Part shown: positions 4,800-17,747 of the stretch, piece by piece
Position numbering within the stretch: the first letter of the stretch is position 1
How the letters are laid out: every line of letters begins with the position of its first letter
From: a virus
Virus record (IMG/VR): IMGVR_UViG_3300050131_000313
Coordinates: 1-20,579 of that record
DNA: 20,579 bases
Reading direction: 5' to 3' (one strand)
Notes under the pieces: generated by a model
Database searches by the model: none
Seen by the model: the letters and a program-made list of their open reading frames with translations, nothing else
What the model was told of the DNA's origin: nothing
Made by a program: the position numbers and the translations under genes

Positions 4800-5050
4800 T
4801 TTTCGTGGTGAACCAGTGGTACGAGACATTCTCTTCGACTTCAGGCAAAAGGAGAATGAGCGCATCGGAGATCCTGAAGTAAGATCCGAGTCGCAGGGGC
4901 AGCGGGTGCAGGGCTAGGTTAGCCGGGAGCCTTCATCATCGTGAGATTAAAACGTGCCTGCGAAAAGATAGCCCCGGAATCCAACCTACGACGGTTGCGC
5001 GAGTGTGGAGACATACCGCTCCCACTGGCACCACGATCAATTTTCTATGT
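4800..5050 (+). other. Unassigned structured interval in the tRNA array
   Basis: 250 bases without a recognised gene. Potential pairings: CATTCTC/GAGAATG (about 4828-4858); ACTTCAGG/CCTGAAGT across about 4839-4881; GGCTA/TAGCC near 4913; and AGTG.GGAG/CTCCCACT near 5002-5026. The density of complementarity suggests a folded RNA or decayed tRNA-like genes. Confidence 0.35.
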
Positions 5051-5133: not shown

Positions 5134-5209
5134 GCCGATGAAGCTTATGCGGTCAGAGCGCTCGTCTGAAGAACGAGAGAAAACAGTTCAACTCTGTTCG
5201 TCGGCACCA
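5134..5209 (+). tRNA. tRNA-Phe(GAA)
   Basis: Acceptor GCCGATG/CGTCGGC, D stem GCTT/GAGC, anticodon stem CTCGT/ACGAG with loop CTGAAGA, T arm AACAG/CTGTT, discriminator A, CCA. Confidence 0.93.
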
Positions 5210-5210
5210 A

Positions 5211-5282
5211 AGTCTCGGAGATGCGGGTTCGAATCCCGCTCCCGCTTCGGCGGGGTAGCTCAATGGTAGAGTGCCGGGAGCT
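5211..5282 (+). ncRNA. Circularly permuted tRNA-like element with UUCG cap
   Basis: The tRNA parts occur in permuted order. First come the anticodon-stem 3' strand CTCGG (5214-5218), variable AGAT and T arm GCGGG TTCGAAT CCCGC (5223-5239). Then come acceptor 3' strand TCCCGC (5240-5245), tetraloop TTCG, acceptor 5' strand GCGGGG (5250-5255), TA, D arm GCTC AATGGTA GAGT (5258-5272), G, and anticodon-stem 5' strand CCGGG (5274-5278). Acceptor and anticodon strands are complementary to each other, so one tRNA body folds with its ends at the anticodon position. It has no CCA. The outer stem can extend by a few pairs. Bacterial Y RNA tRNA-like modules use this same order. If closed as AGCTGA plus T, the loop would read CTG, but the anticodon is not defined. 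The lack of a CCGGA motif argues against Ro binding. Confidence 0.8.
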
Positions 5283-5290
5283 GATTTATG

Positions 5291-5366
5291 TGGACGTTAA
5301 TCGAGCGGCTTCAGATCGTTGACTGTGAATCAACGCAGATGGGTTCAACTCCCATACGTCCAACCA
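5291..5366 (+). tRNA. tRNA-His(GTG)
   Basis: Acceptor TGGACGT/ACGTCCA, anticodon stem GTTGA/TCAAC with loop CTGTGAA, T arm ATGGG/CCCAT, CCA encoded. The discriminator is A, not the C that normally pairs with G-1, although the preceding base is G. A73 His tRNAs are known in some bacterial groups. Confidence 0.92.
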
Positions 5367-14023: not shown

Positions 14024-14533
14024 ATGATGACGCTGGACCGACCACAGTTCGAACTGCTCTACGCGGAATATTCCGCCAGGCTCGTGCGTTTCATATCCTC
14101 GCACACCAACGATGTCGATGACATTGCGGCCGAGACCTGGTTTAAGGCGTGGCGCGGACGCGCTGTATTCCGCGGCGATTCGCTATTCTACACGTGGCTC
14201 TGCACGATCGCCATCAATGAAATCCGCCAACGCGTCAGATCCAACGCGCTCAGGCGAGCCCGCGCTGAAATGGTTCCTCTCGATGCACTGACAGACAGTT
14301 CCATTCCGACCGTCCCGGCGTCGGTCGAGCGAGCGCTGATTGCACGCCAAAAGATCGAAAAAATCATGGACCGGGTGCCAGCGAGAGACCTGCCGCTATT
14401 CCACATGCGCTTTGTACTCGGGTACGGCCCGGTTGAAATTGGAGCCATAACTGGCATTCAGCAGGAGACAGTCAAGACTCGTATCTACCGGTCGCTCAAT
14501 CACTCCACGACAAGCGGCCCGCGGGTCGCATAG
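14024..14533 (+). CDS. ECF-like sigma-70 family factor
   Basis: 169 residues from ATG 14024 (ATG 14027 also possible). Region 2 covers about residues 8-70: LLYAEYSARLVRFI, DVDDIAAETWFKAWRG, FYTWLCTIAINEIR. Region 4 covers about 107-160 with a helix-turn-helix: FHMRFVLGYGPVEIGAITG and QETVKTRIYRSLNH. It directs RNA polymerase to specific promoters, perhaps phage late genes. It was divergent from the small gene now split by the transposon, so its promoter region is altered. Its end overlaps the terL end by 34 bases. Confidence 0.88.
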   Translation: MMTLDRPQFELLYAEYSARLVRFISSHTNDVDDIAAETWFKAWRGRAVFRGDSLFYTWLCTIAINEIRQRVRSNALRRARAEMVPLDALTDSSIPTVPASVERALIARQKIEKIMDRVPARDLPLFHMRFVLGYGPVEIGAITGIQQETVKTRIYRSLNHSTTSGPRVA

Positions 14534-17265
14534 ACGCTTTCAGGTTTGTACAGCAGCATGGCGCGCGCAAGGGCCGTAATGATAGCTGCGCATCCATCAA
14601 TGCGTTTGGATGCCGTCGTCCGGTCTGGCTTCGATGGCTTTATATTGTCCGCGCCGTCGCTCAGGATCGCCAGGCAGGAAGCGTTCCAGTTCAGGATCGG
14701 ATTGTTCCCGTGGGCGATTCTGTTTGCCATGTGCATCGCCAGAAACTCTTTGGTTGGCGCCGAAATGGTTGCGAATCCCTGGCGGATATCGATCGCCGTC
14801 ATACCTTCCTCGTCACTCAGTTTCTGCCCTATGGCGCGCATGCCGCCCCACTTGTCGAACGTGAGCTCCCGCATGTCGAACATTTCCGCGGCCCATTTGA
14901 TCTTGTCTTCGATCACCTTCGCATGCACTTCATACCCAGGTACCATGTCGATGAATTTTCTCTCCATCCAATCGTTCAGGGGAGCCCGAGTCCGCGTCTC
15001 GAAGAATTTCCGGCGCTTCTCCGGGAGCCAATAAAACATCAGGACCTTCCACTGGTCTACGCTGTTGTTGTCGAAGTCGTCCGTTGGCGGGAACAGGCAG
15101 GCCAGCGCTGTCATATCGATTGACCATGCCAGATCGACGCCAACAATGCAGGGCCTGTCGACAAGTCCCCATTTTTTAATGAGCAACTGTACGTCGTAGG
15201 TTGCCCACTCGCGCAGGTCGACGCCGCCGCCGCCTTCATACCACTGCGCCATGTCGATCGCCGGCGTCTCGCTCATCGAGAATGGCACATTGAGGTTGAG
15301 TCGGACGTAGCTGCCCTTCTTTTCCGGCTTAGTCAAAGCATCATTCAAATTCTCTTCGATGTCCGCATCTTTGAGAAATCCGCGATGGTCCTCATGGCTT
15401 GGGTTGGCCGCCACCCGAGCTTCGCGCGACTTCCAGTATTCCGGGTCCTTGATTATCCGCTTTGGATCCGCCTGCCAGATCGCCGCGTGAAACCGCGGGT
15501 TGACCAGACTTCCATCAAGGATGTGTTGAGCATTTTCGTATTCGTCAAACCACAACTTGCTTTCCTGCTCATCGCCGGACGTTGTAGTCTCGACCATGAG
15601 CGGCTCTTTTCTGGAAAGTTGCCCCTTGATCAAAACGGAGTGAACTTCCGCGGCGCCTTTCCGGGTGAAACGGTGAAGTTCGTCGAAAAGAAGAAGGCTG
15701 GGGCGCTTACCATCCTGCGTTTTACCTTCTGCGGCGAGCACGCGGTATACACCGCGGCCGTCTTTCCGGACGATCCGCAGCCGCGATGCGCGGACATCCA
15801 GTATTTGTTTCAGCCGCGGGTTATTGTCGACGAAGAGCTTCGCCGCGTCGAATGTAATCTTTGCCTGATCCGTAGCGCTGGCGATCCCAAAGGCCTCCGG
15901 CATCATCTCATCTGCAACTTCGACCACGATGTGATATATCGGCAACCCGCCGACAAGGAAGCTGTTGTGCGTGGGGACGAATGATTTTCCGACGAGGTAC
16001 AGGTGGGTAGGGTTATCCACCTCGATACACTGCATGGGTCGCTTCTCAACCTCTTTTATGGTTATGTGGTGATACAGTCCGCGAGCCCCTTTGAGTCGCG
16101 GCCACCGACGCTCTAGTTTGCGCGGCAATTTCGAGCACGGCATATCATCCAAGGCTGTAAATTGAACCCGGTAATTCGTGGCGTTCGGAACACCATACCG
16201 ATCTGACTCCACGGGATTGCAGGTAGCTTTGACACCGAGTGATCGAAGAAGCTCCATAACGTCCCGCGATAGTGCCTCGACAGATGTCGAATAAATTGCC
16301 TGCCCTTTGTTGGTCGATATGCAACCGTCCGAATCCATCAGGCCGGCGACAAGTTCCCAGCGCTGCTCAATCGACGCCCTAAGATACTCCAGACGTATCC
16401 TCTTCATGGAAAAATGGGGGACCACAATAGGTCTGAGTTGTGGAATTCGGTATACATTGCTTTCCCCTGCCTGCTCGCGCATCCAAGTGAACTCATATCC
16501 AATGAATGCCATGTTAGCTAAGAACATGTCCACATCAGCGCGATTTACCGTCACCGTGGAGGCGTCAGACTTTCCGTTCCCTAACCAGAAACCGAACGCA
16601 TAAGGATGCACTGGAAGGTCAGATCCGGAAGTGGCGTATTCGACGGCCATCGCCTGTTTTATTCGAAAATATGATTTTTTGTAACCCCCATTTTTAGGAC
16701 ACTGCTCAAACATTTGCAGTGTGGTGAAAACTTGTGGGCCGTAGCGTCCGCTGTATTTCTCAGCAAGCCATTCGTGGCGCTCCCCGGCTATGACGGACGT
16801 ACCGTCACCAAAACACACCTCGAAGGCTCTTTCAGTGTCGACGACATCACTCTTGGCGGTAACGCGCGTAGGCAGCCCGTTTTCGGAGAAAACATAATCG
16901 CCTACTGCGACATTTCCCATGGTCGACCAACCCGACGGAGTTGGTATAAGTTCATTAGAATCAATTAATTTGCCATTTTGTTTTGCAACAGATTCATAGG
17001 CTTTTCGGTACTGGCGGAGTCCGGTGAACTGATCTACGGTTCCGTAGAGGATGCGCAGCTCGTCGTGCTGCCATTTCATCAGATCGTAGCCGAAAGGCTT
17101 GTAGAGGACGTTCCGGAAGAACCGCACCACCCTGCAGCCGCGGCACTGCCAGGCGATAGTCCTGCTCTGGAGGATGAGCCGATCGCACCACGTCTCCACG
17201 CCGCAATAGTTACAGCGTTGCGGCCGGTACTTGGAGCCAGGCGGAATTGGAATGGTCTGGTTCAA
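14500..17265 (-). CDS. Terminase large subunit with internal intein
   Basis: 921 residues from a TTG at 17265 that overlaps the stop of the preceding gene (TTGA). The extein is 586 residues after removing intein 100-434. It has an N-terminal zinc ribbon (CNYC 18-21, CRGC 41-44) and Walker A AKQNGK at 94-99 continuing with S435 after splicing. It also has Walker B LLLFDE 524-529, coupling motif TTTSG 560-564, a nuclease aspartate in VDLAWS (D711) and a later KRIDG Asp (about 890). This is an HK97-type ATPase/nuclease that packages DNA. The intein sits exactly in the P-loop, so the enzyme is inactive before splicing. A longer frame starts at 17358 but overlaps the upstream gene. It is last of a coupled minus-strand operon. 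Confidence 0.93.
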   Translation of the reverse strand: MNQTIPIPPGSKYRPQRCNYCGVETWCDRLILQSRTIAWQCRGCRVVRFFRNVLYKPFGYDLMKWQHDELRILYGTVDQFTGLRQYRKAYESVAKQNGKLIDSNELIPTPSGWSTMGNVAVGDYVFSENGLPTRVTAKSDVVDTERAFEVCFGDGTSVIAGERHEWLAEKYSGRYGPQVFTTLQMFEQCPKNGGYKKSYFRIKQAMAVEYATSGSDLPVHPYAFGFWLGNGKSDASTVTVNRADVDMFLANMAFIGYEFTWMREQAGESNVYRIPQLRPIVVPHFSMKRIRLEYLRASIEQRWELVAGLMDSDGCISTNKGQAIYSTSVEALSRDVMELLRSLGVKATCNPVESDRYGVPNATNYRVQFTALDDMPCSKLPRKLERRWPRLKGARGLYHHITIKEVEKRPMQCIEVDNPTHLYLVGKSFVPTHNSFLVGGLPIYHIVVEVADEMMPEAFGIASATDQAKITFDAAKLFVDNNPRLKQILDVRASRLRIVRKDGRGVYRVLAAEGKTQDGKRPSLLLFDELHRFTRKGAAEVHSVLIKGQLSRKEPLMVETTTSGDEQESKLWFDEYENAQHILDGSLVNPRFHAAIWQADPKRIIKDPEYWKSREARVAANPSHEDHRGFLKDADIEENLNDALTKPEKKGSYVRLNLNVPFSMSETPAIDMAQWYEGGGGVDLREWATYDVQLLIKKWGLVDRPCIVGVDLAWSIDMTALACLFPPTDDFDNNSVDQWKVLMFYWLPEKRRKFFETRTRAPLNDWMERKFIDMVPGYEVHAKVIEDKIKWAAEMFDMRELTFDKWGGMRAIGQKLSDEEGMTAIDIRQGFATISAPTKEFLAMHMANRIAHGNNPILNWNASCLAILSDGADNIKPSKPDRTTASKRIDGCAAIITALARAMLLYKPESVYATRGPLVVE
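15964..16968 (-). mobile_element. Class 3 intein with LAGLIDADG endonuclease in terL
   Basis: 335 residues between GK and SFLVGGLP of the terminase P-loop. The Hint blocks are LIPTPSGW near the start, GDYVFSENGLPTRV, an AGERHEW segment, MQCIEVDNPTHLYLVG and the end VPTHN, followed by Ser. The first residue is Leu, so the usual Cys/Ser1 nucleophile is absent. Instead W67, C314 and T333 form the WCT triplet of class 3 inteins. Between the blocks lie two endonuclease motifs, AFGFWLGNG and ELVAGLMDSDG, each with an acidic or Asn residue at the active position. Splicing should be autocatalytic, and homing into inteinless terL alleles is likely. Confidence 0.9.
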
Positions 17266-17747
17266 ACGGGTAAACCGCCAACAAGGAAACTGTCGTGTGT
17301 CGGTACCATGCTCTCGCCAACAAGGTATAGGTGTGATTCGGAATCCACTTCGACACACTGCATCGGCCGCGGATCCACCTCGGTGATGGAGGAAACAACG
17401 TGCTCGCCAGCCATTCCGTCGCGGGCCGCTTTAGCTATGCGAAAAGACGATTGTAGCTGTTCGAACATTTCGAGAGACGTCCAAACACGTGCTGGTTCTC
17501 GGTTGTTCCGGCACAACCACTGCTGGCGAGAGCCGGCAGTAATGGAAGATCCATCGCTGAATCGGAGTTCGAATACCCTCTCTGTCTCTTCGGCGTCGCT
17601 CTTTGCGATGACCTGAACCGGGCGCATCTTTTCCGATAGCACCGAAGCCCCGACACGAATGTCTCCCATGCTAGTCCATCCACCCGGCCGGGGGACAGGA
17701 GTGCCAAGGTCCATGGCGCCATGCGGGATTGTAATTGTAGTAGTCAC
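17262..17747 (-). CDS. Stand-alone class 3 mini-intein with terL-like ends
   Basis: 161 residues from a GTG that overlaps the stop of the methyltransferase gene (GTGA). The Hint domain is residues 11-152: VPRPGGWTSMGDI, GSRQQWL with W77, MQCVEV with C131 and VPTHD with T150. The WCT triplet is complete, but the final residue is Asp152 instead of Asn, and there is no endonuclease. After it come SFLVGGLPV and a stop, nearly the same as the terminase C-extein. The first ten residues (MTTTITIPHG) resemble the terL N-terminus (MNQTIPIPPG). It looks like a tandem partial duplicate of terL with internal deletions. It may splice, cleave, or be inert. Confidence 0.85.
   Translation of the reverse strand: MTTTITIPHGAMDLGTPVPRPGGWTSMGDIRVGASVLSEKMRPVQVIAKSDAEETERVFELRFSDGSSITAGSRQQWLCRNNREPARVWTSLEMFEQLQSSFRIAKAARDGMAGEHVVSSITEVDPRPMQCVEVDSESHLYLVGESMVPTHDSFLVGGLPV

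What the first reader, a model, noticed from the sequence alone, without database searches (positions are those of the whole stretch)
5211..5282. Stand-alone permuted tRNA-like RNA capped with a cUUCGg tetraloop
In the middle of the ordinary tRNA array lies a tRNA body in permuted order. Acceptor strands are joined by an extra-stable UUCG loop and both ends are at the anticodon stem. Acceptor (6-7 bp) and anticodon-stem (5 bp) strands pair although they lie on opposite sides, so it is not just fragments of two different tRNAs. It lacks CCA and a Ro stem. It may be a tRNA decoy, a precursor of Y-RNA modules, or a link showing how Y RNA modules arose from tRNA arrays.
Basis: partly seen in the sequence, partly recalled or inferred. 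Interest (0 to 1): 0.88.

Follow-up and report, generated by a model that had tools for sequence, protein, structure and literature searches.

The report
Stand-alone permuted tRNA mimic in phage
In a virus of bacteria, a tRNA-shaped RNA with its two halves in swapped order and its amino-acid end sealed by a loop sits as its own unit inside a row of normal tRNA genes; relatives in unrelated phages have kept the same shape while the letters changed, so it is probably a working tRNA mimic rather than a broken gene.

Summary
Window 5214-5278 is a complete tRNA body in permuted order: anticodon-stem 3' strand, T arm, acceptor 3' strand, cUUCGg, acceptor 5' strand, D arm, anticodon-stem 5' strand. 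It lies 4 nt after tRNA-Phe and 12 nt before tRNA-His. A covariance model built without it scores it 63.0 bits; the best ordinary tRNA-tRNA junction here scores 36.8.

It is not a lone deletion scar. Similar stand-alone modules, some as tandem pairs, are wedged between tRNA genes in about 15 fetched loci. One keeps the same tRNA-Pro/tRNA-Gly slot in three Streptomyces phages. Stems covary (17 of 20 pairs changed on both sides), and the tertiary 15-48 pair covaries in 27 of 28.

The fold is that of the tRNA-like domain of bacterial Y RNAs (YrlA), but the Ro60-binding stem is missing. Complete genomes of three phages that carry it (Percival, BAjuniper, Abafar) have no detectable Ro60. This phage does encode Ro60 and, separately, likely Ro-stem Y RNAs.

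Most likely it is a tRNA mimic or decoy freed when its tRNA neighbours are processed. Its target is unproven: tRNA-cleaving nucleases, PNPase or tRNA-modifying enzymes. I found no published description, but the key Y RNA papers could not be read.

The parts
5214..5218 (+). anticodon-stem 3' strand CTCGG (5' end of the module)
   Evidence: pairs with 5274-5278; all five positions of this helix covary across relatives
5219..5222 (+). variable region AGAT; its last base U (tRNA position 48) matches A5263 (position 15)
   Evidence: 15-48 Watson-Crick in 27 of 28 modules, 0 of 20000 shuffles
5223..5239 (+). T arm GCGGG-TTCGAAT-CCCGC
5240..5255 (+). acceptor hairpin TCCCGC-TTCG-GCGGGG (cUUCGg cap in place of CCA and leader)
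   Evidence: helix covaries at every position
5256..5272 (+). U8, A9 and D arm GCTC-AATGGTA-GAGT
5274..5278 (+). anticodon-stem 5' strand CCGGG (3' end of the module)
5134..5209 (+). upstream tRNA-Phe(gaa) with encoded CCA; its 3' processing would give the module's 5' side
   Evidence: processing inferred
5291..5366 (+). downstream tRNA-His(gtg); RNase P cleavage at its 5' end would release the module
   Evidence: processing inferred
8287..9900 (+). Ro60 orthologue (TROVE plus Ro60 vWA domain)
   Evidence: PF05731 4.2e-45, PF25045 6e-46
7836..7980 (+). likely Y RNA with Ro-type stem and its own permuted tRNA-like domain (7871-7952), for contrast
   Evidence: fold; model match 36.4 bits; Ro binding inferred from the motif

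Best explanation
A phage-encoded stand-alone tRNA mimic with the architecture of the tRNA-like domain of bacterial Y RNAs. It is built as a circularly permuted tRNA whose acceptor end is sealed by a UUCG loop and whose 5' and 3' ends lie at the base of the anticodon stem. It occupies one slot of the tRNA array, so RNase P cutting at the next tRNA and 3' maturation of the previous one would release it as a small stable RNA (inferred). It keeps the tRNA core and elbow but cannot be aminoacylated, trimmed at an acceptor end or read a codon, so it should act as a competitive decoy for a protein that recognises the tRNA body. I rate tRNA-cleaving host defence nucleases first, PNPase second and tRNA-modifying enzymes third. 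Shown: structure by comparison, recurrence, covariation, position, lack of a Ro stem, occurrence without Ro60. Inferred: transcription, processing, target. Identity as a real permuted tRNA-like RNA about 0.9; some decoy or competitor function about 0.5; the nuclease target in particular about 0.25.
For: Leave-one-out covariance model: 63.0 bits against 36.8 or less for ordinary tRNA junctions. In 40 modules 93.4% of cells pair; 17 of 20 pairs change on both sides; covariation score 0.672 against 0.189 shuffled and 0.184 or less when slid. Position 15-48 is Watson-Crick in 27 of 28 modules. Modules fit between tRNA genes with gaps of 0-5 nt upstream and mostly 2-12 nt downstream, some as tandem pairs (L117, L256, L257, L299, L303, BAjuniper). 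Synteny: tRNA-Pro / module / tRNA-Gly in Streptomyces phages Abafar, JXY1 and Percastrophe and contig L273 (L288 is cut after the module), with T, D and anticodon arms nearly fixed and the acceptor hairpin rewritten but still paired. No TROVE protein in complete genomes of Percival, BAjuniper and Abafar, nor in 16 of 20 records with such modules. Published work suggests the YrlA tRNA-like domain, which the anticodon nuclease does not cut, as a competitive inhibitor of that nuclease (PMC7790460), and reports it as bound by PNPase and modified by DusA and TruB (PMC8394870).
Against: No expression, binding or phenotype data. No close relative of this phage with the same array was found, so conservation of this particular copy is untested. 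The two matched halves could carry covariation inherited from one ancestral tRNA; against a mere relic, stems have diverged while pairing stayed. With flanks the single-sequence fold prefers an alternative. The module set was chosen partly by a finder that asks for paired stems, and alignment A4 was fitted to the model, so pair counts lean towards the structure. No gene tested is a constant partner: TROVE in 4 of 20 records, RtcB in 2 of 20.
Confidence: 0.5

Rival explanations
1. PNPase ligand: the domain binds PNPase as the YrlA tRNA-like domain does but, lacking the Ro stem, does not bring Ro60, so it occupies PNPase or competes with the phage's own Ro60-Y RNA-PNPase complex.
For: A review reports that the YrlA tRNA-like domain binds PNPase while the basal stem binds Rsr/Ro60 (PMC8394870). 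This phage encodes Ro60 and likely Ro-stem Y RNAs.
Against: Stand-alone modules also occur in phages without detectable Ro60, so competition with a phage Ro complex cannot be the general role; PNPase binding was not testable here.
Confidence: 0.2
2. Non-functional relic: a Y RNA that lost its Ro stem, or a tandem duplicate of one tRNA that collapsed by deletion.
For: The halves look like one tRNA-Gly type (judgement from the sequence). In Caulobacter phage CcrColossus two adjacent normal tRNA-Gly genes show how such halves can lie side by side.
Against: Recurrence in about 15 loci including several named phages, tandem pairs, conservation at one site in three Streptomyces phages, and stems that changed on both sides.
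Confidence: 0.12
3. Permuted tRNA gene whose transcript is circularised and re-cut to give a translating tRNA, as in algal and archaeal permuted tRNA genes.
For: Permuted order with ends at the anticodon side.
Against: No CCA or leader between the acceptor strands, only a 4-nt cap in the window; no room for a 7-nt anticodon loop in tandem pairs with 1-3 nt between them; RtcB in only 2 of 20 records. The T4-type ligase search is uninformative because nothing rang in its controls.
Confidence: 0.03
4. Sponge for tRNA elbow-modifying enzymes (TruB, TrmA, Dus), or a spacer that helps processing of the crowded tRNA transcript.
For: T loop, D loop and elbow-forming bases are kept; YrlA is reported as a substrate of DusA and TruB (PMC8394870); module spacing resembles a tRNA slot.
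Against: A single low-copy RNA seems a weak sponge (inference); most neighbouring tRNA pairs in the arrays have no such spacer.
Confidence: 0.12

Closest known systems
YrlA-type bacterial Y RNA, tRNA-like domain (Rfam RF02553; PDB 6CU1)
   Same: Permuted order T arm / closed acceptor hairpin / D arm with ends at the anticodon side; tRNA-like core and elbow bases
   Different: No Ro60-binding basal stem or GGUUA-type motif; sits inside a tRNA array with about 4 and 12 nt to its neighbours; tandem forms; occurs in phages without detectable Ro60; scores below the Rfam cut-off (36.5 vs 69 bits)
Circularly permuted tRNA genes (Cyanidioschyzon, some archaea)
   Same: 3' half before 5' half in the gene
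   Different: Those restore a standard tRNA after circularisation and cleavage; here a tight loop seals the acceptor stem, with no CCA or leader, and no anticodon loop is encoded
Phage tRNA arrays as counter-defence
   Same: Genomic setting; plausible purpose against tRNA-cleaving defences
   Different: The module cannot serve as a replacement tRNA

Membership tests
YrlA / bacterial Y RNA | permuted tRNA-like domain (T arm, capped acceptor, D arm) | tested here: met
YrlA / bacterial Y RNA | basal Ro60-binding stem with conserved motif | tested here: not met
   4 nt upstream and 12 nt downstream before tRNA genes; no GGUUA-type motif upstream; flank pairing across modules is at chance
YrlA / bacterial Y RNA | Rfam gathering score for RF02553 | tested here: not met
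   36.5 bits against 69; no YrlA row among the 150 matches shown for 12 other loci
YrlA / bacterial Y RNA | encoded near Ro60 | tested here: inconclusive
   Ro60 lies 3 kb downstream here, but Percival, BAjuniper and Abafar with such modules have none detectable
YrlA / bacterial Y RNA | binds Ro60 or PNPase | not testable with these tools
   needs biochemistry
Circularly permuted tRNA gene giving a functional tRNA | CCA/leader between halves and a restorable anticodon loop | tested here: not met
Ordinary tRNA or tmRNA | recognised by ARAGORN or Rfam RF00005/RF00023 | tested here: not met

The most novel reading that the evidence does not exclude
Phage tRNA arrays carry a hitherto undescribed class of Ro-independent, acceptor-sealed permuted tRNA mimics, one per slot or in tandem pairs, that serve as counter-defence RNAs against tRNA-targeting nucleases.
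Probability: 0.25. Interest if true: 0.85.

Novelty: new variant of a known kind. Interest (0 to 1): 0.66.

Why it matters
The permuted tRNA-like fold is known as half of a Y RNA, tied to Ro60. Finding it alone, in tandem, inside phage tRNA arrays and in phages without detectable Ro60 shows that the fold is an independent module and gives simple, testable RNAs for asking what the tRNA-like half does. If it blocks tRNA-cleaving defences it would be an RNA counter-defence that current annotation misses, since ARAGORN and Rfam at its thresholds do not report it. Isolated phages with the module exist (Streptomyces, Microbacterium), so tests are direct.

Tried and rejected
Exact pattern close to the window copy in viral contigs: no hits. 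Megablast of the window against phage records: only one tRNA-sized match. Syntenic relative through Ro60: five loci; of the four compared, none shares this array. Listeria phage P100, chosen because a related phage has abundant RNAs near tRNA genes and an Rsr-like gene: only low-scoring tRNA-like matches, no clear module. GX15bay, the top-listed BLAST hit, reads as two adjacent ordinary tRNAs. Bacterial genome scan: most of 54 hits are chance or ordinary tRNAs, a few are modules. RtcB as a constant partner: 2 of 20; the T4-type RNA ligase search had no positive control, so it says nothing. The pattern for a module followed by a D arm gave mostly unrelated matches. Y RNA papers PMC4201824, PMC10870794, PMC6281776 and PMC6047535 are not held. 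Literature searches for permuted tRNAs in phages gave nothing on this.

Full report
What is there. The window is a 20.6-kb virus record with a large tRNA array. Between tRNA-Phe (ends 5209) and tRNA-His (starts 5291) lies a module at 5214-5278 made of tRNA parts in permuted order: CTCGG - AGAT - T arm - TCCCGC<UUCG>GCGGGG - UA - D arm - G - CCGGG. The anticodon stem has 5 bp, the acceptor stem 6 bp, the T stem 5 bp and the D stem 4 bp, each at or near tRNA length. As an isolated RNA its predicted minimum-energy fold is this permuted cloverleaf; with flanks another fold wins narrowly. ARAGORN and Rfam at its thresholds do not report it; Rfam's YrlA model matches below its cut-off.

More than chance. 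Acceptor strands taken from two different tRNAs of the array match at 6 or more of 7 positions in 28 of 812 combinations, and the module needs the anticodon stem to match as well. Two copies of the same tRNA would match by descent, so the real test is recurrence. A pattern for 'T arm, then T arm and D arm, with no D arm between' (a tRNA followed at once by a permuted module) gave 59 stretches in viral contigs, many of which hold modules. Across all loci fetched, the finder lists 21 distinct modules wedged on both sides between tRNAs or sister modules, in 15 loci, and 15 more with one close neighbour; a few of the weaker ones may be false. A model built from 24 of these without the window copy scores the window copy 63.0 bits; the best ordinary tRNA-tRNA junction in the window gets 36.8.

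Selection. On 40 modules, 93.4% of cells pair, 17 of 20 pairs have changes on both sides, and the covariation score is 0.672 against 0.189 in shuffles and 0.184 or less when partners are slid. The alignment was fitted to the model, so these counts lean towards it. The tertiary 15-48 pair, which was not part of the model or the finder, is Watson-Crick in 27 of 28 modules as G-C, A-U or U-A; this may partly reflect descent of both halves from one tRNA, but it shows that the halves belong together and fit a tRNA core. In Streptomyces phages Abafar, JXY1 and Percastrophe the module keeps one slot between tRNA-Pro and tRNA-Gly; T, D and anticodon arms are nearly identical while the acceptor hairpin and its loop differ but remain paired. 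Microbacterium phage BAjuniper and contig L282 share a tandem pair, with acceptor stems changed on both strands.

Relation to Y RNAs. The fold is that of the YrlA tRNA-like domain, known to superpose on tRNA as a circular permutation (PMC11472068; PMC8394870). Y RNAs have in addition a basal stem that binds Ro60. Here there is no room for it, no motif, and flank pairing across modules is at chance. In this window Ro60 is encoded at 8287-9900, and just upstream of it are likely Ro-stem Y RNAs (7644-7732, 7836-7980, 7988-8078; folds), one with its own permuted domain. TROVE is absent from the complete genomes of Percival, BAjuniper and Abafar and found in 4 of 20 records with stand-alone modules, against 12 of 20 in a mixed comparison set of other records with permuted modules. 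Many of these contigs are fragments, so single absences mean little.

How it may work. Flanking tRNA processing would release the module with only a few extra bases (inferred). It can neither be charged nor decode. The simplest role is competition for a protein that grips the tRNA body. Published work on Salmonella proposes this for the YrlA domain against an anticodon nuclease (PMC7790460); PNPase binding and modification enzymes are rivals (PMC8394870). None was tested here.

Limits. No expression data; no close relative of this phage; modules were collected by patterns that favour common T- and D-arm sequences; the main Y RNA papers could not be read, so priority is uncertain.

Noticed in passing
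window 7644-7732: Likely Y RNA with a Ro-type stem capped by a small hairpin and no tRNA-like module, the complement of the stand-alone module
   Followed up: partly
window 7836-7980 and 7988-8078: Two further likely Y RNAs upstream of Ro60; the first has a permuted tRNA-like domain with a 14-16 nt acceptor cap, the second a hairpin plus T arm only
   Followed up: partly
window 4800-5050: About 250 bp between tRNA-Met and tRNA-Ala with no tRNA or Rfam call; may hold an intron-bearing or odd tRNA
   Followed up: no
window 14500-17747 (-): Terminase large subunit with LAGLIDADG homing-endonuclease sequence (intein-like), and a second terminase/intein-like fragment beside it
   Followed up: no
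L117 2816-2946 (-), L256 2032-2167, L257 6220-6366, L299 393-536, L303 12203-12346 (-): Tandem pairs of stand-alone permuted modules between tRNA genes
   Followed up: partly
L102 6627-6759 (-), L058 11375-11439: Two permuted modules in tandem (L102) or near another T arm (L058) in contexts that look like Y RNAs
   Followed up: no
L332, L338, L326, L309: Permuted modules in Cellulomonas, Leifsonia, Microbacterium and a Corynebacterium-like genome, with no ARAGORN tRNA beside them
   Followed up: no
L256 2306-2384, L117 2616-2695 (-): Rfam tmRNA matches only about 80 nt long, near the permuted modules
   Followed up: no
Microbacterium phage Percival (MH271308.1) 43739-44872: RtcB RNA ligase gene about 1.7 kb upstream of the tRNA-Lys and stand-alone module
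   Followed up: partly
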